This document shows, in pieces, positions 943 to 18,649 of a DNA stretch of 18,854 nt. Source of the stretch: Betaproteobacteria bacterium (GTDB taxonomy: Bacteria; Pseudomonadota; Gammaproteobacteria; Burkholderiales; SG8-41); assembly GCA_021300125.1 (NCBI GenBank), contig JAJTHX010000207.1, positions 1 through 18,854 of the forward strand. Direction: 5' to 3'. Under the pieces are notes generated by a model. That model did not search any database, was not told where the DNA came from, and saw only the letters and a program-made list of their open reading frames with translations. Both the position numbers and the translations under genes were made by a program. Numbering within the stretch: the first letter of the stretch is position 1; the number at the start of each line of letters is the position of its first letter.

Positions 943-1935
943 TCACTCCACCGTGATGTTGGCGGCCTTGACCACCTTCGCCCATTTCGCGATCTCGGCC
1001 TTGAGCCATTTCGCGAACTCCTGCGGCGAATTGCCCACCGGCACCCCGCCTTCGGCCTCGAAGCGCTTGCGCACCTCGGGCGAGTGGACAATGGCGACGA
1101 TGCGCTGGTTGAGCATGCGCACGATGGGCTCGGGCGTGCCGCGCGGCATGAAAATGCCCTGCCAGGTGCCGGACTGGTAGCCCTTCAGGCCGGACTCCGC
1201 AATCGTCGGCAGGTCAGGCACCAGCTGTGAACGTTCGAGGCTGGTCACGGCGACACCGCGCAGTTTGCCGGCGCGCACATGCGTCATCACTGACGGCATG
1301 GTCGCGAACACCACCTGGATGCGGCCGGAAAGCAGGTCGAGGATCGAGCCGGAGGCGCCCTTGTAGGGCACGTGCACGATCTTCGTGCCGGCCATCAGGT
1401 TGAACAGCTCGCCTGCAAGATGCGGACCGCCCCCGTTGCCCGAAGAACCGAAATTGAGTTCCCCGGGCCGGGCCTGAGCCAGCTTGATCAGGTCAGCCAC
1501 CGTGTTGACGGGCAGCGAGGGGTTCACCACCAGGATCTGTGTCGCGGTGGAGGCCAGCGTCACCGGCGCAAAATCGCGCTCGGAGTCGTAGGGCAGCTTT
1601 TTGTAGATGCTCGGGTTGACGCCGAAGGAACTCCCAACCAGCAGCATGGTATAGCCGTCGGGATTGGCCTTGGCCACCATATCCGCCGCCAGCACACCGC
1701 CCCCGCCGCCGGAGCGATTATCAACCACGAACTGCTGGCCCAGCTGCTTGGCGAGTTCGCCGGCGATCATCCGCGCCACGAAGTCGGCATTACCCCCCGC
1801 GGCCTGGGCCACGACGAAACGCACGGGCCGGTTGGGATAACCGGGCAACGACACCTGTGACGCCTGCGCGGCTGCGGCCACTCCGGCAATCAGCAGGAAA
1901 AGGCACGTCATCACCGTCCTAGAGATCTGCCTCAT
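943..1935 (-). CDS. Bug/TctC-type tripartite tricarboxylate transporter substrate-binding protein
   Basis: This is a 330-residue periplasmic receptor. The N-terminus is a hydrophobic signal peptide ending near residue 26. The family signature YPNRPVRFVVAQAAGGNADF (about 33-52) contains the ligand-clamping loop, and HVPYKG occurs mid-protein. Bug proteins bind small carboxylates such as citrate, glutamate or nicotinate, and the ligand cannot be read from sequence. Three starts are possible: the ATG at 1953 overlaps the upstream stop as ATGA, and tandem ATGs lie at 1938 and 1935. I chose 1935 because GGAG at 1942-1945 is best spaced to it (6 bases) and the signal peptide then begins MRQISRT. 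It sits between the crotonase and pirin genes, and no TctA/TctB membrane subunit is nearby. Confidence 0.93.
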   Translation of the reverse strand: MRQISRTVMTCLFLLIAGVAAAAQASQVSLPGYPNRPVRFVVAQAAGGNADFVARMIAGELAKQLGQQFVVDNRSGGGGGVLAADMVAKANPDGYTMLLVGSSFGVNPSIYKKLPYDSERDFAPVTLASTATQILVVNPSLPVNTVADLIKLAQARPGELNFGSSGNGGGPHLAGELFNLMAGTKIVHVPYKGASGSILDLLSGRIQVVFATMPSVMTHVRAGKLRGVAVTSLERSQLVPDLPTIAESGLKGYQSGTWQGIFMPRGTPEPIVRMLNQRIVAIVHSPEVRKRFEAEGGVPVGNSPQEFAKWLKAEIAKWAKVVKAANITVE

Positions 1936-1949
1936 CATCTTCTCCGACC

Positions 1950-2750
1950 TCATCGTCCCTTGAACACCGGTTTGCGTTTTTCCATGAACGCGCGCCGGCC
2001 TTCGATGAAGTCCTCGCTGGCGCCGCAGTCGCGCACCAGTTGTTCGCACAGGGCGACATCGCGATCGGCCGCATCCTTCATCAGCTCGTCAACCACGCGC
2101 TTGGCGGTGAGGATCGACAGCGGCGCGTTCTCGGCCATGTTGCCGGCCCAGGCCCGCACCGTGTTCTCCAGCTCGGCGGCGGGCACCACTTCGTTGACGA
2201 TGCCCATGCGCAGCGCAGCGTCGGCCTTGTAGCGGCGCGCGGTGAAGATGAACTCCTTGGCCACCGAGGGTCCGGTCAGCTCGACCAGGCGGCGCAGGCC
2301 CTCCATGCCGTAGCCGATGCCCAGCCGCGCGGCGGGGATGCCGAACTGCGCGTCATCGGAGCAGATGCGCAGGTCGCAGGACAGCGCCAGTGACATGCCG
2401 CCGCCGATGCAGTAGCCGCGGATCATCGCGATCGTCGGCTTGCCGGTGCCGCGCAGCACCTTGCGCATGCCGGAGGACACCTTCGAATACGTTTCCTGCG
2501 CCTCGGCGTTGGCGCGCTCGTCCTCGAATTTGGAAATATCGGCGCCGGAAACGAAGGATTTGTCGCCGGCGCCGGCGAGCACGATCACGCGCACGGCAGG
2601 ATCGGCATCGAACAGCCGGAGCACCTCGCCCGCGGCCTGCCACATTTCCAGCGACACCGCATTGCGGCGTTCGGGATTGTTGAAAATCAGGAAACCGATC
2701 GCGCCTTCACGGCGCGCGACGATCTTGTCAGTACCGGTGATGATGCTCAT
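1950..2750 (-). CDS. Enoyl-CoA hydratase/isomerase (crotonase) family protein lacking both hydratase glutamates
   Basis: This is a 266-residue crotonase-fold protein. The substrate-binding NNPERRNAVS lies near residues 24-33. The oxyanion-hole segments are SGAD (69-72) and GYCIGGG (112-118). The two acid/base glutamates of rat enoyl-CoA hydratase (Glu144 in GGGCE, Glu164 in QPE) align with Ser120 and Ala140, so simple hydratase activity is doubtful. The family also holds decarboxylases, isomerases, thioesterases and hydrolases that work without one or both. The start at 2750 has AGGAGGTG upstream at good spacing; a longer open frame to 2813 lacks such a site. It is second in the operon, 87 bases after the dehydrogenase, and its TGA abuts the next gene. 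Confidence 0.9.
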   Translation of the reverse strand: MSIITGTDKIVARREGAIGFLIFNNPERRNAVSLEMWQAAGEVLRLFDADPAVRVIVLAGAGDKSFVSGADISKFEDERANAEAQETYSKVSSGMRKVLRGTGKPTIAMIRGYCIGGGMSLALSCDLRICSDDAQFGIPAARLGIGYGMEGLRRLVELTGPSVAKEFIFTARRYKADAALRMGIVNEVVPAAELENTVRAWAGNMAENAPLSILTAKRVVDELMKDAADRDVALCEQLVRDCGASEDFIEGRRAFMEKRKPVFKGR

Positions 2751-3978: not shown

Positions 3979-4950
3979 ATGTCATGCCGCATGTCCCCGG
4001 CGCTGGCGCTTGCGCTGGCCGCCCTGTTTTCTGCCGGTACCGCGCTGGCGCAGCAGCCGTATCCGAACCGGCCGGTCCGCCTGGTCATCCCCTTCCCCGC
4101 CGGCGGCAACGTCGACGTGTTTTCGCGCGTGCTGTTCCGCCAGGTCGAGGCTGAACTGGGCGCCACCTTTGTCATCGACAACCGCGGCGGTGCCAACGGC
4201 ATCGTCGCCGCCGACACGGTGCGCAGCGCTGCCCCCGACGGCTACACCGTCATGAACACCTCCTTCAGCTTTGCGGTCAACCCGGCGATCGTGAAGAGGC
4301 TGCCCTACGACGTGGTGCGCGACTTCACGCCGATCACCAACGTCGCCACCGGCCTCGGCTATCTGCTGGTGGTGCATCCGTCAGTGCCCGCGAAAAACAC
4401 CGCGGAACTGATCGAGGTCGCGCGCAAGCAGTCGCTGCGCTACAGCACCGCCGGTATCGGCAACGGCCAGCACCTGGCTGGCGCACTGCTCGCGAACATG
4501 ACCAAGACCGACCTGCTGCATGTGCCCTACAAGGGCGGCGGCCCGGCAATGACCGCGGTGCTCGGGGGCGAAGTGCAGATCCATTTCCCCGCGGCCTCGG
4601 TGGGCCTGCCGCATGCCAAGGCCGGCCGCGTGCGTTCGATCGCCTTCACCGGCGCCAAACGGCTGGCCAACCTGCCCGACTTGCCCACCGTGGGCGAGAC
4701 CGTGCCCGGTTACGTTTCCGATGCGGGCTGGCACGGCATGTTCGGCCCGCCGCGGCTGCCGGCAGCAATCACCAACCGCCTGCAGCAGGCCGTTCACAAG
4801 GCACTGCAGGAGCCGAAGGTGAACGCCCATTTCGTCGACAACGGCTACGAGCCCAACGGCGACCGCCCGGAAGTCTGGGCCGCCAAGTTCAGGGAGGATG
4901 TGAAACGATTCGCGGCCATCGCCAAGGCCGCCGGTATCGAACCCCAGTAG
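3979..4950 (+). CDS. Bug/TctC-type substrate-binding protein
   Basis: This is a 323-residue receptor with a clear Sec signal peptide, cleaved probably after Ala-Leu-Ala at residues 22-24. The signature YPNRPVRLVIPFPAGGNVDV (28-47) and a later HVPYKGGGPA are typical of Bug/TctC proteins, which fold as two-domain Venus flytraps and carry carboxylates to a TctA/TctB membrane pair or act in sensing. The start has GGAGGAG at 3964-3970, 8 bases from the ATG. It is a single-gene unit ending in a hairpin terminator at 5010-5034, and it shares its upstream region with the divergent dehydrogenase operon. The ligand is unknown. Confidence 0.94.
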   Translation: MSCRMSPALALALAALFSAGTALAQQPYPNRPVRLVIPFPAGGNVDVFSRVLFRQVEAELGATFVIDNRGGANGIVAADTVRSAAPDGYTVMNTSFSFAVNPAIVKRLPYDVVRDFTPITNVATGLGYLLVVHPSVPAKNTAELIEVARKQSLRYSTAGIGNGQHLAGALLANMTKTDLLHVPYKGGGPAMTAVLGGEVQIHFPAASVGLPHAKAGRVRSIAFTGAKRLANLPDLPTVGETVPGYVSDAGWHGMFGPPRLPAAITNRLQQAVHKALQEPKVNAHFVDNGYEPNGDRPEVWAAKFREDVKRFAAIAKAAGIEPQ

Positions 4951-4963
4951 GACCTGGCGTGCA

Positions 4964-5003
4964 TGACAGCAGCAGCCCGGCCGTGACAGCAGCAGTCCGG
5001 CCG
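4964..5003. repeat. Tandem duplication of a 20-bp unit
   Basis: TGACAGCAGCAGCCCGGCCG (4964-4983) is directly followed by a second copy at 4984-5003 that differs only by T for C at 4996. It lies between the TctC stop and the terminator hairpin. It looks like a recent slippage duplication; no function is evident. Confidence 0.9.
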
Positions 5004-5009
5004 TTATTG

Positions 5010-5034
5010 AAGCGCCCCGGCCGGGCGCTTTGTT
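5010..5034 (+). terminator. Intrinsic terminator of the TctC gene
   Basis: AAGCGCCC at 5010-5017 pairs with GGGCGCTT at 5023-5030 (8 bp) around a CGGCC loop, and TGTT extends the T-rich tail. It is 60 bases after the TctC stop and upstream of the selenoprotein pair, so that pair is probably transcribed on its own. Confidence 0.7.
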
Positions 5035-5035
5035 C

Positions 5036-5041
5036 TAGAAT
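5036..5041 (+). promoter_or_regulatory. Candidate -10 element for the selenoprotein pair
   Basis: TAGAAT at 5036-5041 matches a sigma-70-type -10 at five of six positions and lies 61 bases before the ATG at 5103. The same TAGAATCAT 9-mer occurs at 7491-7499 and, inverted, at 7449-7457. No good -35 is seen at 16-18 bases; TTGAAG at 5007-5012 is 23 bases away. This is an inference from one hexamer. Confidence 0.35.
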
Positions 5042-5102
5042 CATCCCATCGTGCCCGAAACCGGCGCGAATCCATCCCCAACACAGCGCTCCCGGAGGCT
5101 TC

Positions 5103-5621
5103 ATGCGTGCGAAATCCCTGATCGGCACCCTGCTGCTGGGCGCCGGCCTGATCTGGCAGACCGCTGCAGCCAGCGGACTCCAGTTGGTCAGCCCCCCCAC
5201 ACCGATGCCGGCATTCAAGTCAGCCAACCTCGGCGGCAGCAGCACCAGCGATGCCGACCTGCGCAACAAGGTCACCATCATCCGCTTCTGGGCCTCCTGG
5301 TGAGCCTCCTGCGTGCGTGAGATGCCCTCCGTGCAGAGGGCACATGAAGAACTGAACAAGGACGGCATCAAGGTCATCACGGTGTCGATCGACGGCACCG
5401 GCGAAACCGCGGTGAAGCCGATTTTCGCCAAGGGCGGCTATACCCTGCCTGCCCTGCTCGACCCCAACATGGAAGTGGCCCGCGGGTTCGGCGTGCGCGG
5501 CGTGCCCTCCACCGTGGTCGTCGATGCCAAGGGCATGATCCGTGCCCGCACCCTGGGCCACATCGACTACGGCGGCCCGGAGTTGCGCAATTTCGCGCGC
5601 GACCTCGCCCGCGGCAAATAA
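5103..5621 (+). CDS. Selenocysteine-containing exported TlpA/ResA-like thioredoxin (in-frame TGA at U67)
   Basis: Read through one TGA at 5301-5303, this encodes 172 residues. An N-terminal signal peptide (about 1-23) predicts export to the periplasm. A thioredoxin fold follows, with FWASW-U-A-S-C-VREMPS (62-76) at the active site and the cis-Pro loop GVPST (P135). TlpA/ResA proteins have W-C-x-x-C here, so the TGA replaces exactly the attacking cysteine and gives UxxC with resolving Cys70. No other cysteine is present. The frame is open on both sides and ends in TAA. The start has GGAGG at 5094-5098. A SECIS-like hairpin lies at 5323-5342. It is 23 bases upstream of a second TGA-interrupted redox gene. 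A nonsense mutation is the alternative, but the downstream half shows no decay. Confidence 0.9.
5323..5342 (+). promoter_or_regulatory. Candidate bacterial SECIS element for the thioredoxin
   Basis: UGCCCUC (5323-5329) pairs perfectly with GAGGGCA (5336-5342), 7 bp, around the hexaloop CGUGCA (5330-5335). The loop begins 27 bases after the TGA, within the roughly 16-37 base range described for bacterial SECIS elements, and has a G among its first two bases, followed by U. SelB would bind it to direct Sec-tRNA to the UGA. The hairpin lies within coding sequence, as is normal in bacteria. Not tested by folding software. Confidence 0.75.
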
Positions 5622-5644
5622 CCCACCCTCAACCGGGAGAGCCC

Positions 5645-6211
5645 ATGACCCCGTCCTCACCGTTACACTGGCTGGTCGCCTTCGCATGCAGCCTGCTGCT
5701 GGCCACCGCAGCGCAGGCCCAGATGCCCAGGGTCGGCGACAAGGCGCCGGATTTCTCGCTGCCCTCGACCACAGGGGCGACCGTTGCGCTCGCCGACCAT
5801 CTCGGCAAGCGCAACATCGTGCTGTTCTTCTACGTCGCCGCGTTCACCGACACCTGAACGACCGAAGTCGTGGCCTTCCAGCTTGATCTCCCCAAGTTCG
5901 AGGCCGCCCATGCCCAGGTCCTGGGCATCAGTGTCGATTTCAACGCCGCCAACACGGCATTCGCCGAGCGTCTTGGCCTGAAATTCCCGCTGCTGAGCGA
6001 CACCCGGCGCATCATGAGCCGCGCCTACGGCGTGCTCAACGACGATGCCGCCGCGGCTGGCGATCCGAAACGGGTGGCGGGTTACCTGCGCTCGAAGCGG
6101 GCCTGGTTCATCATCGACCGCCAGGGTGTGGTGCGCTACACCAATGTCGACGACCCGCGCGGCATCATGCCCAACGACGAACTGCTGGCCGTGCTGAAAA
6201 AGCTGCAGTAG
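5645..6211 (+). CDS. Selenocysteine-containing exported BCP/AhpC-type peroxiredoxin (in-frame TGA at U71)
   Basis: Read through one TGA at 5855-5857, this encodes 188 residues: a signal peptide (about 1-26), the redoxin opening VGDKAPDFSLP, then FFYVAAFTDT-U-TTEVVAF. Peroxiredoxins carry PxxxTxxC at this point with Cys as the peroxidatic residue, so U71 replaces it and gives T-x-x-U. The motif's proline is Val64. The mature part contains no cysteine, making it a one-Sec enzyme with no internal resolving thiol. It should reduce H2O2 or organic peroxides in the periplasm using an outside thiol. A later SKRAWFIIDRQGVVRYT segment is typical. GGGAGA at 5635-5640 precedes the ATG; the gene ends in TAG. 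It follows the UxxC thioredoxin by 23 bases, which suggests that protein as reductant. Confidence 0.9.
5872..5905 (+). promoter_or_regulatory. Candidate bacterial SECIS element for the peroxiredoxin
   Basis: A two-part hairpin follows the TGA. The lower stem pairs GGCCUU (5872-5877) with GAGGCC (5900-5905). After a small internal loop, the upper stem pairs AGCUUG (5880-5885) with CAAGUU (5893-5898); each stem includes one G-U pair. The apical loop is AUCUCCC, starting 29 bases after the TGA, within the bacterial SECIS range. If the last G-C pair opens, the loop starts with G, as the consensus prefers. It fits less well than the hairpin of the upstream gene. Confidence 0.6.
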
Positions 6212-6222
6212 GTCCTGCGCCA

Positions 6223-6246
6223 GCGGCCGCGATACCTCGCGGCCGC
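6223..6246. terminator. Strong hairpin between convergent genes
   Basis: GCGGCCGCGA (6223-6232) pairs perfectly with TCGCGGCCGC (6237-6246), a 10-bp stem with a TACC loop. It lies between the peroxiredoxin stop (6211) and the convergent TctC stop (6254). There is no T-tract on either side, so it is terminator-like rather than a classic intrinsic terminator. Confidence 0.6.
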
Positions 6247-6253
6247 CGCACCA

Positions 6254-7225
6254 TCAATCCAGTTTCAGGTTGAGTTTCTTCAGGATGCGCTCGTTGCGCT
6301 GCATCTCGCTGCGGATGTAGGCATCGTAGTCGGCAGGGCTCATCGTGCCCTCGGAAAATCCCTGCCTTGCCAGCGTCGCCGCCGCCTCGGGTGTCCTCAG
6401 GGCTTTCGCCACCTCGGCTGACAGCCGCTCCACGATTGGCCGCGGCGTGCCGGCACGCGCCATGATGCCGAACCAGTTCAGCGATTCGAATCCGGGCCAG
6501 CCCGACTCGGCGATGGTCGGAATCTGCGGCAGGTTGGACGCGCGCTGCGCCGAGGTCACCGCGAGGCCGCGCAAACGCCCCGAAGGAATGTACTGTGAGC
6601 AGTCGAGCACGTTGCCGACCAGCAGCGTGATATGGCCGCCGAGGATGGCCGTGGTCGCCGGCGCACCGCCGCCGAAGGGCACATTGATCAGGTTGATGCC
6701 GGCGAGGTCGTGAAAGAGTTCTCCGGCGATGCGGCCGCCGCCGATGATGCTCGACACCCCCCAGGACAGTTCCCCGGGACGCTTTTTCGCCAGCGCCACC
6801 AGTTCCTTCATGTTCTTCACCGGCAGCGAAGGATGGGCGCAGTAGATCAGCGGGTTGTAGACCATGCGCGTGACCCCGGTGAAGTCGCGCAGCGAATCGT
6901 AGGGCATCTTTGAATAGGCGAAGGGATTGACGGTGAAGCTGGTCGCCATCACCAGCAGGGTGTACCCGTCAGCCGGCGCACGCGCGGCGATCTCGGTCGC
7001 GATCACCGTGTTTGCACCGGGCCGGTTCTCGATGGTCAGGTTCTGGCCCAGTGCCTTCGACACGGTGGGAGCGACCAGGCGCGCCATGGTGTCGGCAGCA
7101 CCACCCGGCGGGAACGGCACCAGCACGCGGATCGGCCGCGTCGGATAGTCCTGCGCCAGAACCGCCACCGGCAGCAACAGCGATGCCGCCATCAATGCCG
7201 CACTTAACGTATTGCGTATGCCCAT
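6254..7225 (-). CDS. Bug/TctC-type substrate-binding protein
   Basis: This 323-residue periplasmic receptor has a signal peptide ending in AVLA (21-24) and the signature YPTRPIRVLVPFPPGGAADT (27-46). Later family segments such as the GELSWGVSS region and INVPFGGGAP match, the latter replacing the usual HVPYKGG. The start at 7225 has GGGAGGAG at good spacing (7229-7236); a longer open frame to 7303 would hide the signal peptide. It is transcribed alone, converging on the selenoprotein pair and diverging from the operon at 7577. The ligand is unknown. Confidence 0.93.
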   Translation of the reverse strand: MGIRNTLSAALMAASLLLPVAVLAQDYPTRPIRVLVPFPPGGAADTMARLVAPTVSKALGQNLTIENRPGANTVIATEIAARAPADGYTLLVMATSFTVNPFAYSKMPYDSLRDFTGVTRMVYNPLIYCAHPSLPVKNMKELVALAKKRPGELSWGVSSIIGGGRIAGELFHDLAGINLINVPFGGGAPATTAILGGHITLLVGNVLDCSQYIPSGRLRGLAVTSAQRASNLPQIPTIAESGWPGFESLNWFGIMARAGTPRPIVERLSAEVAKALRTPEAAATLARQGFSEGTMSPADYDAYIRSEMQRNERILKKLNLKLD

Positions 7226-8559: not shown

Positions 8560-9474
8560 ATGAAAAAATTCAATCCCGGATTCGTCCACACCCCCGTCAC
8601 CCCGTTCAGGGCCGACCAGAGCATCGACTTCGACACCTACTCGCGCGTCCTCGATTTCCACATCAACAACGGTGCCGATGCGCTGGCCCTGCCGATGCCG
8701 CAGGGCGAGGACATCAGCATGACCGAGGTCGAACAGCGCAAGCTGCTGGATTTCGCGATGAAACAGGTCAAGGGCCGCCTGCCGGTGATCGCCCACATCG
8801 GCGACCCCGGCACCGACATCGCTGTCGCCCGCGCCCGCCATGCCGAAAGCCTCGGCGCCGCGGCGATCGCCGCGCACCCGCCCTACTTCTGGCATCCCAA
8901 GGCCTCGATGGTTGCCGAGCACCTGGTGCGCGTCGGCGGCGCCACCAGGCTGCCGTTCTACATCTGCACCCCGGTAGTGGAGGACGCGGGCACCCACCTC
9001 ACAGCCGAGATCGTGCTCGACGTGCTCAAGCGCCTCGACAACGTCGCCGGACTGGTCGATTCGAGCATGCGCTTCGTGTTCATGGTCGAGGTGCTGTCGC
9101 TCGGACGCGAAATCAAGCCCGGCTTCCAGCTGCTCTCCGGCACGGACTACATGGTCAGCAACGGCGTGGTCGGCGGCAATGGCGTGTTCTCGCCGCTGGC
9201 GAGCGTCGCGCCGAAACTGGCGCGCCAGCTCTACGAACTGTGCGCGAAGCAGCAGTTCACCCAGGCGCGCAAGCTGCAGGAACAGATGGCGCTGCTGCAC
9301 CACACCCTGAAGACCGCCGGTTACGCCGGCCTCAAGGGCGCGCTGCGGCTGATGGGCCGTGAATGCGGCGAACCGAGACTGCCGCGCAGCAGCCTCGGCG
9401 TCGCCGAAGCGGCGCGGCTGGCCGAGCAGATCGCGGCGATGCCCTTCCTGCAGGGCGAGCCGCGCGGCTGGTAG
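8560..9474 (+). CDS. DapA-superfamily protein lacking the catalytic lysine
   Basis: This 304-residue paralogue of the preceding gene has the same barrel opening (HTPVTPF, DFHINNGADAL) and a matching C-terminal half. At the Schiff-base position the context GMKDAS becomes GLVDSS, with Val166 (GTC codon) for Lys. The motif Tyr position is Ile135 (YICTP for YNVP), although Tyr134 is adjacent. It therefore cannot use normal class I aldolase chemistry at that site; it may be a pseudoenzyme partner of the first protein or have another activity. The reading frame is clean and the C-terminus (EPRGW) resembles that of its neighbour (EPHGW), which argues against decay. The start at 8560 has only a weak upstream GAG and may rely on coupling to the upstream gene. 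Confidence 0.88.
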   Translation: MKKFNPGFVHTPVTPFRADQSIDFDTYSRVLDFHINNGADALALPMPQGEDISMTEVEQRKLLDFAMKQVKGRLPVIAHIGDPGTDIAVARARHAESLGAAAIAAHPPYFWHPKASMVAEHLVRVGGATRLPFYICTPVVEDAGTHLTAEIVLDVLKRLDNVAGLVDSSMRFVFMVEVLSLGREIKPGFQLLSGTDYMVSNGVVGGNGVFSPLASVAPKLARQLYELCAKQQFTQARKLQEQMALLHHTLKTAGYAGLKGALRLMGRECGEPRLPRSSLGVAEAARLAEQIAAMPFLQGEPRGW

Positions 9475-9538
9475 CACGCCCCCGGTCCGGCCGCGCCCGC
9501 GTGCGCCGGACCAACCTTCCCATTTGCGGAGAATCCCG

Positions 9539-10528
9539 ATGAACACGCGACTCGCCATGCCCGTGCTCGCGGTGCTGGCCCTGCTCGGCACCTCACCGTC
9601 GCAGGGCCAGAGCGGCTGGAAGCCATCGAAGCCGGTGGAAATCATCCTGCCCACCGCCGCCGGCGGCGCCAACGACAACATGGCGCGCCTGATCCAGAAA
9701 GCGCTGCAGGACAACAAGATCGTGCAATCGCCGCTGGTGGTGATGAACAAGGCCGGTGGCAACCAGACACTGGCCGCGACCTACCTGCGCCAGAACGCCA
9801 AGGACCCGCATTACCTGCTGTACTCGACCTCGACGGTGTTCACCTCGCACATCACCGGACTGGTTGCGCAGAACTACACCGACCTCGCCCCGATCGCGCT
9901 GCTGATGACCGAATACAGCGTGTTCTCGGTGCGGCCGGATTCCCCGATCAAGGGCGTGAAGGACCTGATGGCCCGGCTCAAGGCCGACCCGCAGTCGGTG
10001 TCCTTCGGCGTGGTCAGCCTCGGCGGCTCCAACCATATCGCGCTGTCCCAGGTGGCGCGTGCCGCGGGCGTCAATCCGAGGCAGTTGCGGGTGGTGGTGT
10101 TCAAGACCAATGTCGAGTCCTACCTTGGTGTCGCCGGCGGGCACATCCATGCCGTGGCCTCGTCGGCCAGCGCCGCCATGCCTTTCCTGCAACAGGGCAC
10201 CGCGCGTGTGCTCGCCATCGCCGCACCCCAGCGCCAGACCGGCGCACTGGCCAGCGTGCCGACCCTGCGTAACGAGGGCGTGGACATCCCGCTCACCACC
10301 AACTGGCGCGGCGTCTTCGGCGCCCCGGGCATCACCCCGGCCCAGGTTGCCTTCTGGGAGGACGCCTTCTCCCGCATGGTCGCCACCGAAGACTGGAAAA
10401 AAGCCCAGGAACTGGGCGAGCACGGCCGCAGGTTTCTGGCCGGGCGCGATTTCCAGAAATTCCTGGACATTGAATACCAAGTCTCCAGGACCGTGCTCAC
10501 CGAACTCGGATACGCCAAGCAGCCATGA
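9539..10528 (+). CDS. Bug/TctC-type substrate-binding protein
   Basis: This 329-residue receptor has a signal peptide (about 1-24) and a divergent binding signature, KPVEIILPTAAGGANDNMAR (30-49), which lacks the usual YPxRP start. The second lobe lacks HVPYKG and has VVFKTNVES instead, so it belongs to a different branch from the other receptors here. GGAGAA at 9528-9533 precedes the ATG. It lies 64 bases after the second DapA-like gene, and its TGA overlaps the next gene's ATG (ATGA at 10525-10528). Context suggests it captures the compound that the operon's enzymes process. Confidence 0.9.
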   Translation: MNTRLAMPVLAVLALLGTSPSQGQSGWKPSKPVEIILPTAAGGANDNMARLIQKALQDNKIVQSPLVVMNKAGGNQTLAATYLRQNAKDPHYLLYSTSTVFTSHITGLVAQNYTDLAPIALLMTEYSVFSVRPDSPIKGVKDLMARLKADPQSVSFGVVSLGGSNHIALSQVARAAGVNPRQLRVVVFKTNVESYLGVAGGHIHAVASSASAAMPFLQQGTARVLAIAAPQRQTGALASVPTLRNEGVDIPLTTNWRGVFGAPGITPAQVAFWEDAFSRMVATEDWKKAQELGEHGRRFLAGRDFQKFLDIEYQVSRTVLTELGYAKQP

Positions 10529-12911: not shown

Positions 12912-13877
12912 TCAGTCCATCACGATGTTCAGCGGCTTCGCCACCTTGGCCCACTTGGCGATGTCGCCGTCGATCAGCCGGCCGAATTCGGCGGGGGAAA
13001 CCTCGGTCGCCTCGACCCCGGCACCGAGCAGCCGTTCGCGGGTCTCGGGTTGGCGTACTGCGGCCAGCACCGCAACGTGCAGCCGGTCAATCACCGGCTT
13101 CGGCGTGCCGCGTGGCGCGACCAGTCCGTACCAGCCGCTGACGGCATAGCCGGGCAGGCCCGACTCCGAGATTGTCGGCAGTGCCGGCAGCGCCGGTGTA
13201 CGCTTCGCGGTGGTCACGCCGAGTCCGCGGATCTTGCCCGACTGCAGGTGCGGCCGCGCCACCGCCACGGTCGAGAAAAACACCTGCACGCGGCCGGCGA
13301 GCAGATCGGCCATCGCCGGATTGCCGCCCTTGTAGGGCACATGCAGCATCTTGATGCCGGCCATCGAGTTGAACAGCTCGGCGGCAAGATGGGTCAGGTT
13401 GCCGGTGCTTGAGGAGGCATACGACACCAGCCCCGGCTTCGCCTTCGCCAGTGCAATCAGCTCGCTGCTGTTCGAGACCCCCGCGCCGGGATGGGCAACG
13501 AAGACATAGGCGCCGTCGCCGAACTGCGCCACCGGCACGAAATCGCGCTGCGTATCAAAAGGCAGCTTCGGATACAGCGCCGGATTGATGGCATGGCCCG
13601 CGGCCACCACCAGCAGCGTGTAGCCGTTGGGCGCCGCGCGGGCGACGATCTCGGAGCCGATCAGCGTGTTGCCGCCACCGCGGTTGTCCACGATCACGTT
13701 CTGGCCCAGCTCGCGCGACATCGTCGGTGACACCAGCCGCGACACGATGTCATTCGCCCCGCCGGCCGGATAGGGCACGACCATGCGCACCGGCCGCGAA
13801 GGAAAGGTCTCCGCCACCGCCTGCAGCGCCAGGGCGCCCAGCAGGGCAGCCGCCCAGCATCGGTGATTTCGTTTCAT
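12912..13877 (-). CDS. Bug/TctC-type substrate-binding protein
   Basis: This 321-residue receptor has a signal peptide ending in AVA (20-22), the signature FPSRPVRMVVPYPAGGANDI (25-44) and HVPYKGGNPA mid-protein. The start at 13877 follows GGAGGAG with good spacing (13884-13890 on the minus strand). The same frame stays open far upstream, antisense to the ThDP enzyme, but only this start gives a signal peptide and a ribosome-binding site. It is a single-gene unit, convergent with the alpha/beta hydrolase and divergent from the ThDP enzyme gene. The ligand is unknown. Confidence 0.94.
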   Translation of the reverse strand: MKRNHRCWAAALLGALALQAVAETFPSRPVRMVVPYPAGGANDIVSRLVSPTMSRELGQNVIVDNRGGGNTLIGSEIVARAAPNGYTLLVVAAGHAINPALYPKLPFDTQRDFVPVAQFGDGAYVFVAHPGAGVSNSSELIALAKAKPGLVSYASSSTGNLTHLAAELFNSMAGIKMLHVPYKGGNPAMADLLAGRVQVFFSTVAVARPHLQSGKIRGLGVTTAKRTPALPALPTISESGLPGYAVSGWYGLVAPRGTPKPVIDRLHVAVLAAVRQPETRERLLGAGVEATEVSPAEFGRLIDGDIAKWAKVAKPLNIVMD

Positions 13878-13939
13878 CCGTTTCTCCTCCAATCTGTTCC
13901 AGTCTGTTTTTGTTGGGCAATTCCCGGACATTGAAGCAC

Positions 13940-16805: not shown

Positions 16806-17762
16806 TCATTCAGGGCGGATCGCACCCTCGCGGATAATCGCGCCGAAGCGCAGATACTCCTGCTGCATCAGGCGCATGAAGCCGTCGGGTGTGCCCTCCA
16901 CCACCGGCTCCGCGCCCTGGCTGGCGAAACGCTGGCGCAGCGCCGGCGTGCGCAGGCTGCTCACGGTATCACCATGCAGCTGCTCGACGATTCGCCGCGG
17001 CGTGGCCTGCGGCGCCACCAGCCCCGACCAGCTGTCGAACTGCGCCTCCGGCAAGCCCGCCTCGCCGATGGCCGCGACCTGCGGCAATGCCGGGCTGCGG
17101 CCTGCGGTCATCACCGCCAGCGCGCGCAGCCGCCCATCCTTCACCGGGCCGATCACCGCGGGTAGCGTCAGCACGGCGAAATGCACGCGGCCCAGCCCCA
17201 TCTCGATCTCGCTCTGGCCGACCGTGCGGTAAGGCACGTGCACCGCCCGTATGCCCATCGCCCGCGCAAGCACCTCGCCGGCCAGGTGCGAGGCCGAGCC
17301 AATGCCCATCGAGGCGAAATTCAGATCACCCGGACGCGCCCGCGCGTGGCGTGCGAATTCCGCCGCGCTGCGCACCGGAAGATCTGGTGCCGTCACCAGC
17401 ACGTTGGTGATCGAGGCTACATGCGCGACGGCCGTGATGTCGGCCAATGGACGATATGGTGGCGAGTCCCGCAACAGCGCATTGATCAGCCGCGTCACGC
17501 CGACCATGCCCAGGGTATGGCCGTCGGCGCCGGCGCGCGACAGCAGCAGGTTGCCGATCAGACCACCGGCACCGGGCCGGGGATCGATCAGCACCCGCTC
17601 GCGGTAGCGAGACTCCAGCGCTTCGCCGAGGGCGCGCGCGAAAAACTCGTCGGCCGACCCCGGCGAGGCGGCGACGATGATGCGGATCGGCCGTTGCGGA
17701 AAATCCGCGTGCACCGCGGTCGCCGCCCCGAAACACAGGGCAGCAGCCGCGATCCGGCGCAT
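16806..17762 (-). CDS. Bug/TctC-type substrate-binding protein, divergent
   Basis: This 318-residue receptor has a signal peptide ending AVHA (16-19). The binding signature is unusual: FPQRPIRIIVAASPGSADEF (21-40), in which the normal P-x-GG-x-x-D loop has become PGSADE, so ligand contacts may differ. HVPYRTVGQS replaces HVPYKGG. The start at 17762 shares one base with the stop of the upstream dienelactone-hydrolase-like gene (TGATG), and no separate ribosome-binding site is seen, so translation is probably coupled. A longer frame to 17807 lies inside the upstream gene. It is the last gene of the operon that enters from the right edge. Confidence 0.92.
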   Translation of the reverse strand: MRRIAAAALCFGAATAVHADFPQRPIRIIVAASPGSADEFFARALGEALESRYRERVLIDPRPGAGGLIGNLLLSRAGADGHTLGMVGVTRLINALLRDSPPYRPLADITAVAHVASITNVLVTAPDLPVRSAAEFARHARARPGDLNFASMGIGSASHLAGEVLARAMGIRAVHVPYRTVGQSEIEMGLGRVHFAVLTLPAVIGPVKDGRLRALAVMTAGRSPALPQVAAIGEAGLPEAQFDSWSGLVAPQATPRRIVEQLHGDTVSSLRTPALRQRFASQGAEPVVEGTPDGFMRLMQQEYLRFGAIIREGAIRPE

Positions 17763-18649
17763 CAGCCGCGCAGGTGCTTGTTGAAAAACTCCAGCGTTCG
17801 CTGCCATGACAGTTTCGCCGCGGCCTCCTCGTAACGCGGCGTGGTGTCGTTGTGGAACCCGTGCAGCGTGTTCGGATAAATGTGCGCGATGTAGTTGATC
17901 TTGTACTCCTTCAGCGCCGCCTCGTACGCGGGCCAGGTCTTGTTCACGCCCTCGTCATCGCTGGCGAAATGCAGCAGCAGCGGCGACCTGATCTTCGGCA
18001 CCTCCGAGGCCGGCACCTGGCGGCCGTAGTACGGCACCGAAGCCGAGAAGTCTGGCATGCGCGTGGCCAGCAGGTTGCAGATGTAGCCCCCGAAGCAGAA
18101 GCCGACGACGCCGATCCTGCCCGCCTCGGGACGCGCCTTCAGGAACTGCGCGCCCTGGTAGAGATCCTCTTCGCGCTTTTTCGCGTCCTGCGCGGCAAAC
18201 AGCGTACGCGCCTTGTCCTCGTCGCCGGGATAACCGCCCACCGGCGTCAGCGCATCCGGCGCAAAGGCGACGAAGTTCGCGGTGGCGAGCCGCCGCGTGA
18301 CATCCTCGATGTAGGGATTCAGGCCGCGGTTCTCGTGGATCACCAGCACCGCCGGCAGCTTGCCCTTCATGCCGGCGGGTGCGGCGTAGTAGCCGCGGAT
18401 GCGGCCATGGCCCTGCGGCGAATCGTATTCAAGATACTGCGTGCGGATGCGCGGATCGTCGCGCGCCACCTGCTGCGCCCAGGCGAAATTGGGCTTCAGC
18501 GCCTCGAGCATCGCCGTCGCAGTGAAGGCCCCGACCGCGAACTTCGCGGCGCGGTCGAGGAATTCGCGGCGGTCGATGCGGCCATGCACATAGCCGTCGA
18601 ACAGTTTCATCACTTCCGGCGGAAAATCACTGGCTTTCTTGCGTTCCAT
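17762..18649 (-). CDS. Dienelactone hydrolase family protein with Tat signal
   Basis: This 295-residue protein has a dienelactone hydrolase-type alpha/beta fold. The nucleophile is C185 in GFCFGG, the acid D231 or D232 (ASDDEG), the base H263 (LHGFH), and E106 in HENRGL matches the conserved glutamate near the active-site cysteine in DLH. The N-terminus reads IDRREFLDRAAKFAVGAFTA (25-44), a twin-arginine motif plus hydrophobic stretch, so a folded export route to the periplasm is likely. It should cleave a lactone or ester. AGGAGA precedes the ATG. It is 42 bases after an amidohydrolase gene and directly coupled to the TctC gene, which suggests uptake and breakdown of a lactone- or ring-derived acid. 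Confidence 0.93.
   Translation of the reverse strand: MERKKASDFPPEVMKLFDGYVHGRIDRREFLDRAAKFAVGAFTATAMLEALKPNFAWAQQVARDDPRIRTQYLEYDSPQGHGRIRGYYAAPAGMKGKLPAVLVIHENRGLNPYIEDVTRRLATANFVAFAPDALTPVGGYPGDEDKARTLFAAQDAKKREEDLYQGAQFLKARPEAGRIGVVGFCFGGYICNLLATRMPDFSASVPYYGRQVPASEVPKIRSPLLLHFASDDEGVNKTWPAYEAALKEYKINYIAHIYPNTLHGFHNDTTPRYEEAAAKLSWQRTLEFFNKHLRG

What the first reader, a model, noticed from the sequence alone, without database searches (positions are those of the whole stretch)
5103..6211. A two-gene exported selenoprotein module: UxxC thioredoxin plus one-Sec peroxiredoxin
Two adjacent genes, 23 bases apart, each carry one TGA precisely at the catalytic cysteine. Two independent nonsense mutations at these exact codons are very unlikely. 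Both proteins have signal peptides, which suggests work outside the cytoplasm. The peroxiredoxin lacks a resolving thiol, and the thioredoxin has Sec and a resolving Cys, so the pair could form a self-contained periplasmic peroxide-reducing relay fed by a DsbD/CcdA-type donor. Selenoprotein Prx and Trx-like families are known, mainly from anaerobes and marine metagenomes; I do not recall this exported tandem in a Burkholderiales-like setting.
Basis: inference. Interest (0 to 1): 0.95.

Follow-up and report, generated by a model that had tools for sequence, protein, structure and literature searches.

The report
Paired exported selenium thioredoxin and peroxiredoxin
Two adjacent genes, found side by side in dozens of related bacteria and each carrying an in-frame UGA at the catalytic position, most likely encode two selenium proteins that are predicted to be exported and would work as a pair to destroy peroxides outside the cytoplasm, in a lineage where a published survey had found only one selenium protein.

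Summary
Window 5103-5621 encodes a TlpA/ResA-like thioredoxin (TGA at codon 67, UASC), 5645-6211 an AhpC/TSA-fold peroxiredoxin (TGA at codon 71, FTDTU), 23 bases apart. In 74 genomes of the window's family, 43 of 43 close Prx copies (42 genomes) and 41 of 41 close Trx copies (40 genomes) have exactly one TGA. Of 50 distinct Prx genes with DNA in hand, 46 have the Sec-type Trx directly upstream; three others are cut by contig ends, one is unclear. Hairpins after both UGAs exceed synonymous recodings; the downstream halves are under purifying selection; selA and most of selB are in the genome. Six relatives carry the reverse pair, Sec-Prx then CxxC-Trx, independent support for a functional link. 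All 50 Sec Prxs lack the active-site Pro that four Cys relatives keep. Best reading: a periplasmic peroxide reductase whose Sec-Trx re-reduces a one-Sec Prx. Chemistry, export and the DsbD donor are inferred. A new variant of known selenoprotein families; my seven paper searches show no report of this tandem.

The parts
5094..5098 (+). ribosome-binding-site-like GGAGG before the Trx start
   Evidence: sequence; similar motifs precede many homologous starts, but the starts there were chosen with a bonus for such motifs
5103..5621 (+). Sec-thioredoxin gene, TlpA/ResA-like, 172 residues with U67; signal-peptide-like residues 1-24
5301..5303 (+). TGA most likely read as selenocysteine, first residue of UASC
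   Evidence: TGA in 46 of 46 distinct homologues with DNA in hand; one TGA in each of 41 family copies
5323..5342 (+). SECIS-like hairpin of Trx: 7-bp stem TGCCCTC/GAGGGCA, loop CGUGCA, loop 26 nt after UGA
   Evidence: 302 of 308 cells paired in 44 unique sequences, changes on both sides at three pairs, 0 of 200 synonymous recoding sets reach it
5645..6211 (+). Sec-peroxiredoxin gene, AhpC/TSA family, 188 residues with U71; signal-peptide-like residues 1-26; no Cys after residue 26
5855..5857 (+). TGA most likely read as selenocysteine at the peroxidatic position (FTDTU)
   Evidence: TGA in 50 of 50 distinct homologues with DNA in hand; one TGA in each of 43 family copies
5872..5905 (+). SECIS-like hairpin of Prx, 12 pairs: GGCCUU and AGCUUG with CAAGUU and GAGGCC
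   Evidence: 443 of 492 cells paired in 41 unique sequences; 0 of 200 synonymous recoding sets reach it; shuffle z -3.38 for the window

Best explanation
The two adjacent genes carry conserved in-frame UGA codons at the catalytic positions of a TlpA/ResA-like thioredoxin and a peroxiredoxin, and most likely encode two selenoproteins, predicted to be exported, that would act together as a peroxide-reducing pair in the periplasm. Shown here: the two reading frames, the UGAs at the catalytic positions, conservation of both UGAs and of gene order, selection on both downstream halves, hairpins after both UGAs, and selA/selB in the genome. Inferred: SelB and tRNA-Sec read both UGAs as selenocysteine; both proteins cross the membrane by a signal peptide; peroxide oxidises the Prx selenol (U71, helped by T68 and R152) to a selenenic acid; having no resolving thiol of its own, the Prx is re-reduced by U67 of the thioredoxin through a transient Se-Se bond that C70 resolves; the resulting Se-S bridge is reduced by a DsbD-type transmembrane donor, for which the genome has one gene elsewhere.
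For: Both TGAs at catalytic Cys columns. Family of 74 genomes: 43 close Prx copies in 42 genomes, each with one TGA; 41 close Trx copies in 40 genomes, each with one TGA, all in genomes with the Prx. 46 of 50 distinct Prx loci in hand have the Trx directly upstream on the same strand, 11-84 bases away with starts chosen by rule. Hairpins beyond coding constraint. Median dN/dS downstream of the UGA 0.376 (Trx) and 0.230 (Prx). selA and selB side by side in the own genome. In a draw of 300 genomes of the order, 12 of 12 with the pair-type Prx have SelA against 75 of 288 others; tRNA-Sec over cut-off in 11 of these 12. Six genomes carry a Sec-Prx followed on the same strand by a CxxC TlpA-like Trx. 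49 of 50 Sec-Prx have no Cys after residue 26, 46 of 46 Trx have C at +3. DsbD present. Nearest solved folds: Bcp4 and the 1-Cys AhpE for Prx; a Geobacter thioredoxin, ResA-type proteins and TlpA for Trx.
Against: No tRNA-Sec was found in the own genome; it is 79.9% complete and the sel contig ends inside selB, while in the 11 relatives the tRNA gene lies on the contig of selA. The Prx hairpin has a G in the first two loop positions only if its closing G-C pair opens, so it meets the published bSECIS model only in part; 49 of its 492 cells are unpaired, many of them in a group of sequences whose lower stem pairs in a shifted register; for the window alone 1 of 200 recodings has as many Prx pairs. 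The best fold of 48 nt at the window's Trx UGA is a competing structure, not the conserved hairpin. The Prx lacks the Pro of PxxxTxxC. DsbD is not linked to the pair. In L079 about 160 bases before the Prx show no Trx tail. Counted by genus the link with SelA is weak (p 0.056). Signal peptides rest on a rule of my own: 38 of 45 Trx and 35 of 48 Prx pass; those that fail have a hydrophobic core but no A-x-A. No direct evidence of contact or activity.
Confidence: 0.66

Rival explanations
1. Both are selenoproteins and linked, but the flow runs the other way: the Prx uses peroxide to oxidise the Sec-Trx, which then passes disulfides to envelope proteins (peroxide-driven oxidative folding).
For: The same partner contacts would be used; gene linkage and Sec conservation do not tell direction.
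Against: The Trx is nearest to TlpA-, ResA- and CcmG-type proteins, known as reductants (recalled; TlpA as reductant of ScoI seen in passages of PMC4491210). A DsbD gene is present.
Confidence: 0.13
2. The Sec-Trx serves other envelope clients (cytochrome c, copper chaperones) and the Prx is recycled by another thiol; the genes are neighbours because both need selenium or the same regulation.
For: TlpA-like proteins have such clients (PMC4491210 passages); no direct evidence for Trx-Prx contact here.
Against: 41 of 41 close Sec-Trx copies of the family are in genomes with the Sec-Prx; the pair persists in 11 upstream and 7 downstream neighbourhood groups among 43 loci with enough flank on each side; a Sec-Prx/CxxC-Trx pair in reverse order exists, so a shared need for selenium does not explain the link there.
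Confidence: 0.16
3. TGA is a real stop (pseudogenes or regulated truncation), or TGA means Trp in this organism.
For: Standard-code ORFs end and restart there; 26 of the 120 listed Prx hits carry W at the site.
Against: Purifying selection after the TGA, the same site in every copy read, hairpins, selA/selB present, TGA used as stop in 14 of 19 window genes. Two of the W proteins differ from loci L127 and L129 only at that residue, and the DNA there is TGA, so W is a gene-calling artefact at least there.
Confidence: 0.02

Closest known systems
Sec-peroxiredoxin, TxxU family (PF00578/COG1225; Eubacterium acidaminophilum type, as listed in PMC9312934 and PMC13188914, passages)
   Same: Sec at the peroxidatic position, TxxU, AhpC/TSA fold
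   Different: Predicted to be exported, no resolving thiol, lacks the Pro of PxxxTxxU that the 2026 review calls highly conserved
Sec-containing thiol-disulfide isomerase-like / TlpA-like families (cd02966, UxxC and UGC; PMC13188914, passages)
   Same: TlpA-type fold with Sec as first active-site residue (UxxC form)
   Different: In the 74 family genomes it always comes with the Sec-Prx; it passes no NCBIfam cut-off. Whether it is the same family as the listed UxxC one was not tested
[quoted passage not shown] review)
   Same: Two selenoprotein genes side by side, one a Prx; the single Prx/Prx-like 2 read is the nearest precedent (that family is listed as UxxC, pfam04592)
   Different: Other partner families; the passages seen examine neither export, conservation nor function
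ScsB and cell envelope peroxiredoxin pathway (Cho et al. 2012; only the title seen, in a reference list; details recalled)
   Same: Envelope peroxiredoxin fed by a DsbD-like transporter, through a thioredoxin-like protein (recalled)
   Different: Cys-based (recalled); here both partners carry Sec and no transporter gene was found beside them
Mycobacterial AhpE (1-Cys Prx, PDB 1xvw, 4x1u)
   Same: Close fold match; one-Cys chemistry needing an external reductant (recalled)
   Different: Cytosolic, Cys, keeps the Pro (recalled)

Membership tests
Bacterial selenoprotein gene (Trx) | In-frame UGA at a redox Cys position, conserved in homologues | tested here: met
   46 of 46 distinct loci read; one TGA in each of 41 family copies
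Bacterial selenoprotein gene (Trx) | bSECIS: loop 3-9 nt, stem 4-16 bp, G in first two loop positions, loop 16-37 nt from UGA, MFE -7.5 kcal/mol or lower (model from PMC13188914 section 5) | tested here: met
   6-nt loop CGUGCA, 7 bp, 26 nt, -12.3 kcal/mol for the hairpin segment; a competing fold exists in the window
Bacterial selenoprotein gene (Prx) | In-frame UGA at a redox Cys position, conserved in homologues | tested here: met
   50 of 50 distinct loci read; one TGA in each of 43 family copies
Bacterial selenoprotein gene (Prx) | bSECIS model as above | tested here: inconclusive
   Stem, spacing (28 nt) and energy (-17.3) fit; loop AUCUCCC has no G in its first two positions unless the closing G-C pair opens
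Bacterial selenoprotein gene (both) | selA, selB in the genome | tested here: met
   (selB cut by the contig end); selD not searched
Bacterial selenoprotein gene (both) | tRNA-Sec in the genome | tested here: inconclusive
   none over cut-off in the own, incomplete genome; 11 of 11 other pair genomes searched have one
Bacterial selenoprotein gene (both) | Selenium in the protein | not testable with these tools
   needs mass spectrometry
AhpC/TSA family (PF00578) | Pfam gathering score | tested here: met
   Prx 114.5 bits, Trx 77.7 bits, cut-off 26
Typical peroxiredoxin | PxxxTxxC/U motif with its Pro | tested here: not met
   residue 64 is V; V 5, I 43, T 2 in 50 Sec copies; P in 4 of 4 Cys relatives
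Typical peroxiredoxin | Catalytic Thr and Arg (positions recalled from the family) | tested here: met
   T68 in 50 of 50; R152 in 47 of 50, window included, lost in L042, L079, L081
Typical peroxiredoxin | Peroxidase activity | not testable with these tools
   needs an assay
NCBIfam Sec-Prx equivalogs (PrxU, Prx-SUH) | curated cut-off | tested here: not met
   53.7 of 270 and 32.2 of 298 bits
TlpA/ResA-like thioredoxin | Thioredoxin-like fold, WCxxC-type site, cis-Pro | tested here: met
   WUxxC, invariant P135, nearest folds 3kcm, ResA-type and TlpA; not over the NCBIfam ResA or TlpA cut-offs
Envelope (periplasmic) protein | Signal peptide | tested here: inconclusive
   own rule: 38 of 45 Trx, 35 of 48 Prx; no dedicated predictor

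The most novel reading that the evidence does not exclude
This is a dedicated all-selenium peroxide relay of the cell envelope, in which electrons pass from one selenocysteine enzyme to another through a Se-Se intermediate, and in which selenium let the peroxiredoxin drop the active-site proline that every Cys relative seen here keeps.
Probability: 0.42. Interest if true: 0.85.

Novelty: new variant of a known kind. Interest (0 to 1): 0.68.

Why it matters
A 2006 survey states that fdhA encodes the only selenoprotein of the Sec-decoding Alpha- and Betaproteobacteria it covered (PMC1794560, passages), and a 2016 survey puts more than three quarters of selenoprotein-rich species among anaerobes (PMC5029168, passages). 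Here a two-gene selenoprotein unit recurs in 42 of 74 genomes of a Burkholderiales-type family (label from related record titles) with no Cys form among them, and it is probably exported. It offers a natural Sec-Sec enzyme pair with internal comparisons (Sec without Pro, Cys with Pro; a Sec-Prx with a CxxC Trx), so the old question of what Sec buys over Cys becomes directly testable. It also shows how protein catalogues hide such genes as truncated ORFs or W variants.

Tried and rejected
Rfam scan of 4800-6600 gave only chance-level matches. Pseudogene, sequencing error and code-4 reassignment were rejected. The eight weak tRNA-Sec matches of the own genome (L001-L008) lie where ARAGORN calls ordinary tRNAs. 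Viral contigs: nothing. Class and phylum draws at E 1e-32 (369 and 398 genomes, the own one and a few of its order included): the own genome and one Cys protein, G511, which looks PrxQ-like (label recalled) with no such Trx in its 3.5 kb. The W variants looked at first like real Trp losses; two of 26 are shown to be TGA, the other 24 could not be checked, and some of these have a weaker motif (AFSGLW and the like), so a real loss in a few is not excluded. Flanking ORFs of four further loci gave no redox partner by eye; no family search was run on them. The neighbourhood groups are single-linkage, and solute-binding-protein paralogues merge unrelated loci, so 11 and 7 are probably too few. Tree: the Cys relatives lie among Sec forms (P0105 beside L042 at 99/82), which suggests Sec to Cys changes, but the root is a midpoint and long branches meet, so no direction is claimed. 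Only 120 of 614 Prx hits and 120 of 182 Trx hits were listed and classified. In one search at most 11 candidates per genome were scored, so 12 of 300 is a lower bound.

Full report
Observation. The window carries two reading frames on the + strand that are open only if one TGA each is read through: 5103-5621 (172 residues, U67) and 5645-6211 (188 residues, U71), 23 bases apart. Pfam places both in the AhpC/TSA and Redoxin families above the gathering scores. In profile alignments to solved structures U67 lies on the first Cys of WCxxC and U71 on the peroxidatic Cys of TxxC. AlphaFold models have mean pLDDT 89.1 (Trx) and 82.7 (Prx); both are weakest in the first 20 residues, and the Prx also at 64-66 around residues 131-150. 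The Trx model is nearest to a Geobacter thioredoxin, ResA-type proteins and TlpA, the Prx model to Bcp4 and the 1-Cys AhpE.

Conservation. A scan of genome contigs with peptide patterns that do not include the Sec codon gave 31 loci: 26 close relatives, all with TGA in the Prx; 23 of them also hold the Trx site, all TGA; the other three are at contig ends. The remaining five are distant Cys Prxs without such a Trx. In the 74 genomes of the window's family a profile holding Sec, Cys and W rows finds 43 close Prx copies in 42 genomes, each with exactly one TGA. The Trx profile finds 41 close copies in 40 genomes, each with one TGA and all in genomes that have the Prx; the two Prx genomes without it (G1031, G1043) are cut by contig ends, and in G1029 the two genes are on different contigs, the Trx there not read by me. 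Among 50 distinct Prx genes with DNA in hand, all TGA at the site, 46 have the Trx upstream on the same strand, 11-84 bases away (starts chosen by rule). Of the other four, L032 shows the Trx tail, L034 and L041 begin inside or just before the Prx, and L079 has about 160 bases without a Trx tail, a possible exception. Class and phylum draws (369 and 398 genomes, the own one and a few of its order included) gave only the own genome and one distant Cys Prx; L040, titled only 'Proteobacteria bacterium', has the pair.

Sec decoding. After each UGA lies a hairpin. For Trx 302 of 308 cells of a 7-bp stem are paired in 44 unique sequences, with changes on both sides at three pairs (C-G to U-A at two, U-A to G-C at one); sets of synonymous recodings average 3.95 of 7 pairs against 6.86 observed, 0 of 200 sets reaching it. 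For Prx 443 of 492 cells of 12 pairs are formed, 10.80 against 8.76, 0 of 200 sets; for the window alone 1 of 200 Prx recodings has as many pairs and none as low an energy. Held against the published bSECIS model the Trx hairpin meets all four rules; the Prx hairpin lacks the loop G unless its closing pair opens, and in one group its lower stem shifts register. Against this, the minimum-energy fold of 48 nt at the window's Trx UGA is a competing structure. Codons after the UGA are under purifying selection: median dN/dS 0.376 (961 of 1035 sequence pairs with usable dS, maximum 0.947) and 0.230 (1104 of 1225, maximum 0.521). The own genome has selA and selB side by side, selB cut by the contig end. 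Its tRNA-Sec was not found, but the assembly is 79.9% complete and the sel contig stops inside selB, while in the 11 relatives searched the tRNA gene lies on the contig of selA; 11 of 12 pair genomes have one over the cut-off. In a draw of 300 genomes of the order, all 12 with the pair-type Prx have SelA against 75 of the other 288 (p 2e-7 by genome, 0.056 by genus).

A second architecture. Six family genomes have a more distant Sec-Prx (FYVLDFTPTU), exported-looking by eye, followed on the same strand by a TlpA-like Trx with CxxC (L138-L143). An exact hairpin GTCGTCC/GGACGAC with loop AGTAG or AGTCG follows that UGA in five of six; the sixth has one mismatch. Because here only the Prx needs selenium, the gene link cannot be a mere sharing of selenium supply; this is the best evidence that the Trx serves the Prx.

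Active sites. All 46 Trx have C at +3 of U; 49 of 50 Prx have no Cys after residue 26. T68 is invariant and the canonical Arg (R152; assignment recalled) is present in 47 of 50, missing in L042, L079 and L081. The Pro of PxxxTxxC is V, I or T in all 50 Sec copies and V in all six type-B copies, but P in the four Cys relatives, in the outgroup and in a separate Sec-Prx of the own genome. So Sec in these two clades goes with loss of a residue that the 2026 review calls highly conserved also in Sec-Prx (PMC13188914, passages); the own-genome exception shows that Sec does not force the loss. That Sec, being deprotonated without help, tolerates it is my inference.

Mechanism. Prx selenol reduces peroxide and becomes a selenenic acid; with no resolving thiol it must be reduced by a partner; the co-encoded Trx has Sec to attack and Cys to resolve; a DsbD-type protein would reload the Trx. 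The genome has a DsbD and, next to it, a CxxC TlpA-like protein; a DsbD search found none near the pair. Every step of this paragraph is inferred from family chemistry.

Prior knowledge. The 2006 survey says fdhA encodes the only selenoprotein of the Sec-decoding Alpha- and Betaproteobacteria it covered (PMC1794560, passages). [quoted passage not shown] The 2005 Sargasso Sea paper and the 2022 review list the single families (PMC1088965, PMC9312934, passages). The 2026 review lists single families and other operons (PMC13188914, outline, passages and section 5). My seven paper searches showed no report of this tandem in the open-licence library; subscription papers are not covered.

Catalogue artefact. 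Of 120 listed Prx hits, 90 are ORFs that start after the UGA, 26 carry W and 4 carry C at the site. P0121 and P0029 differ from the proteins of L127 and L129 only by W, and the DNA there is TGA. Of 120 listed Trx hits, 119 start after the site and one has C.

Noticed in passing
L069 (G000:C311) 2060-2509, minus strand: A third likely selenoprotein of the own genome: a Prx with no evident signal peptide, motif PFAFTGGU, which keeps the active-site Pro; a similar TGA-bearing one is in L082 (G263).
   Followed up: partly
L138-L143 (six family genomes): Reverse pair: exported-looking Sec-Prx (FYVLDFTPTU) followed by a CxxC TlpA-like Trx, with its own SECIS-like hairpin.
   Followed up: partly
26 of the 120 listed proteins: Public catalogues carry W at the Sec site; two are shown to be TGA in DNA, which points to gene calling with a TGA=W code on short contigs.
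   Followed up: partly
L042, L079, L081: Sec-Prx that lack the canonical Arg (R152) as well as the Pro; closest to the Cys forms P0105 and P0019.
   Followed up: partly
L019, L024, L025: Records titled Rhizobiaceae and Bordetella parapertussis share the region with Burkholderiales MAGs; the titles may be wrong.
   Followed up: no
G100:C331:664-753 and G100:C103:467-557: Two tRNA-Sec matches over the cut-off in one genome (80 and 75 bits).
   Followed up: no
window 943-2049, 3985-4950, 6254-7225, 9464-10528, 12915-13900, 16806-17807: Many paralogues that look like tripartite tricarboxylate (Bug-type) solute-binding proteins surround the pair (label recalled, no family search run; some starts are my guess).
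   Followed up: no
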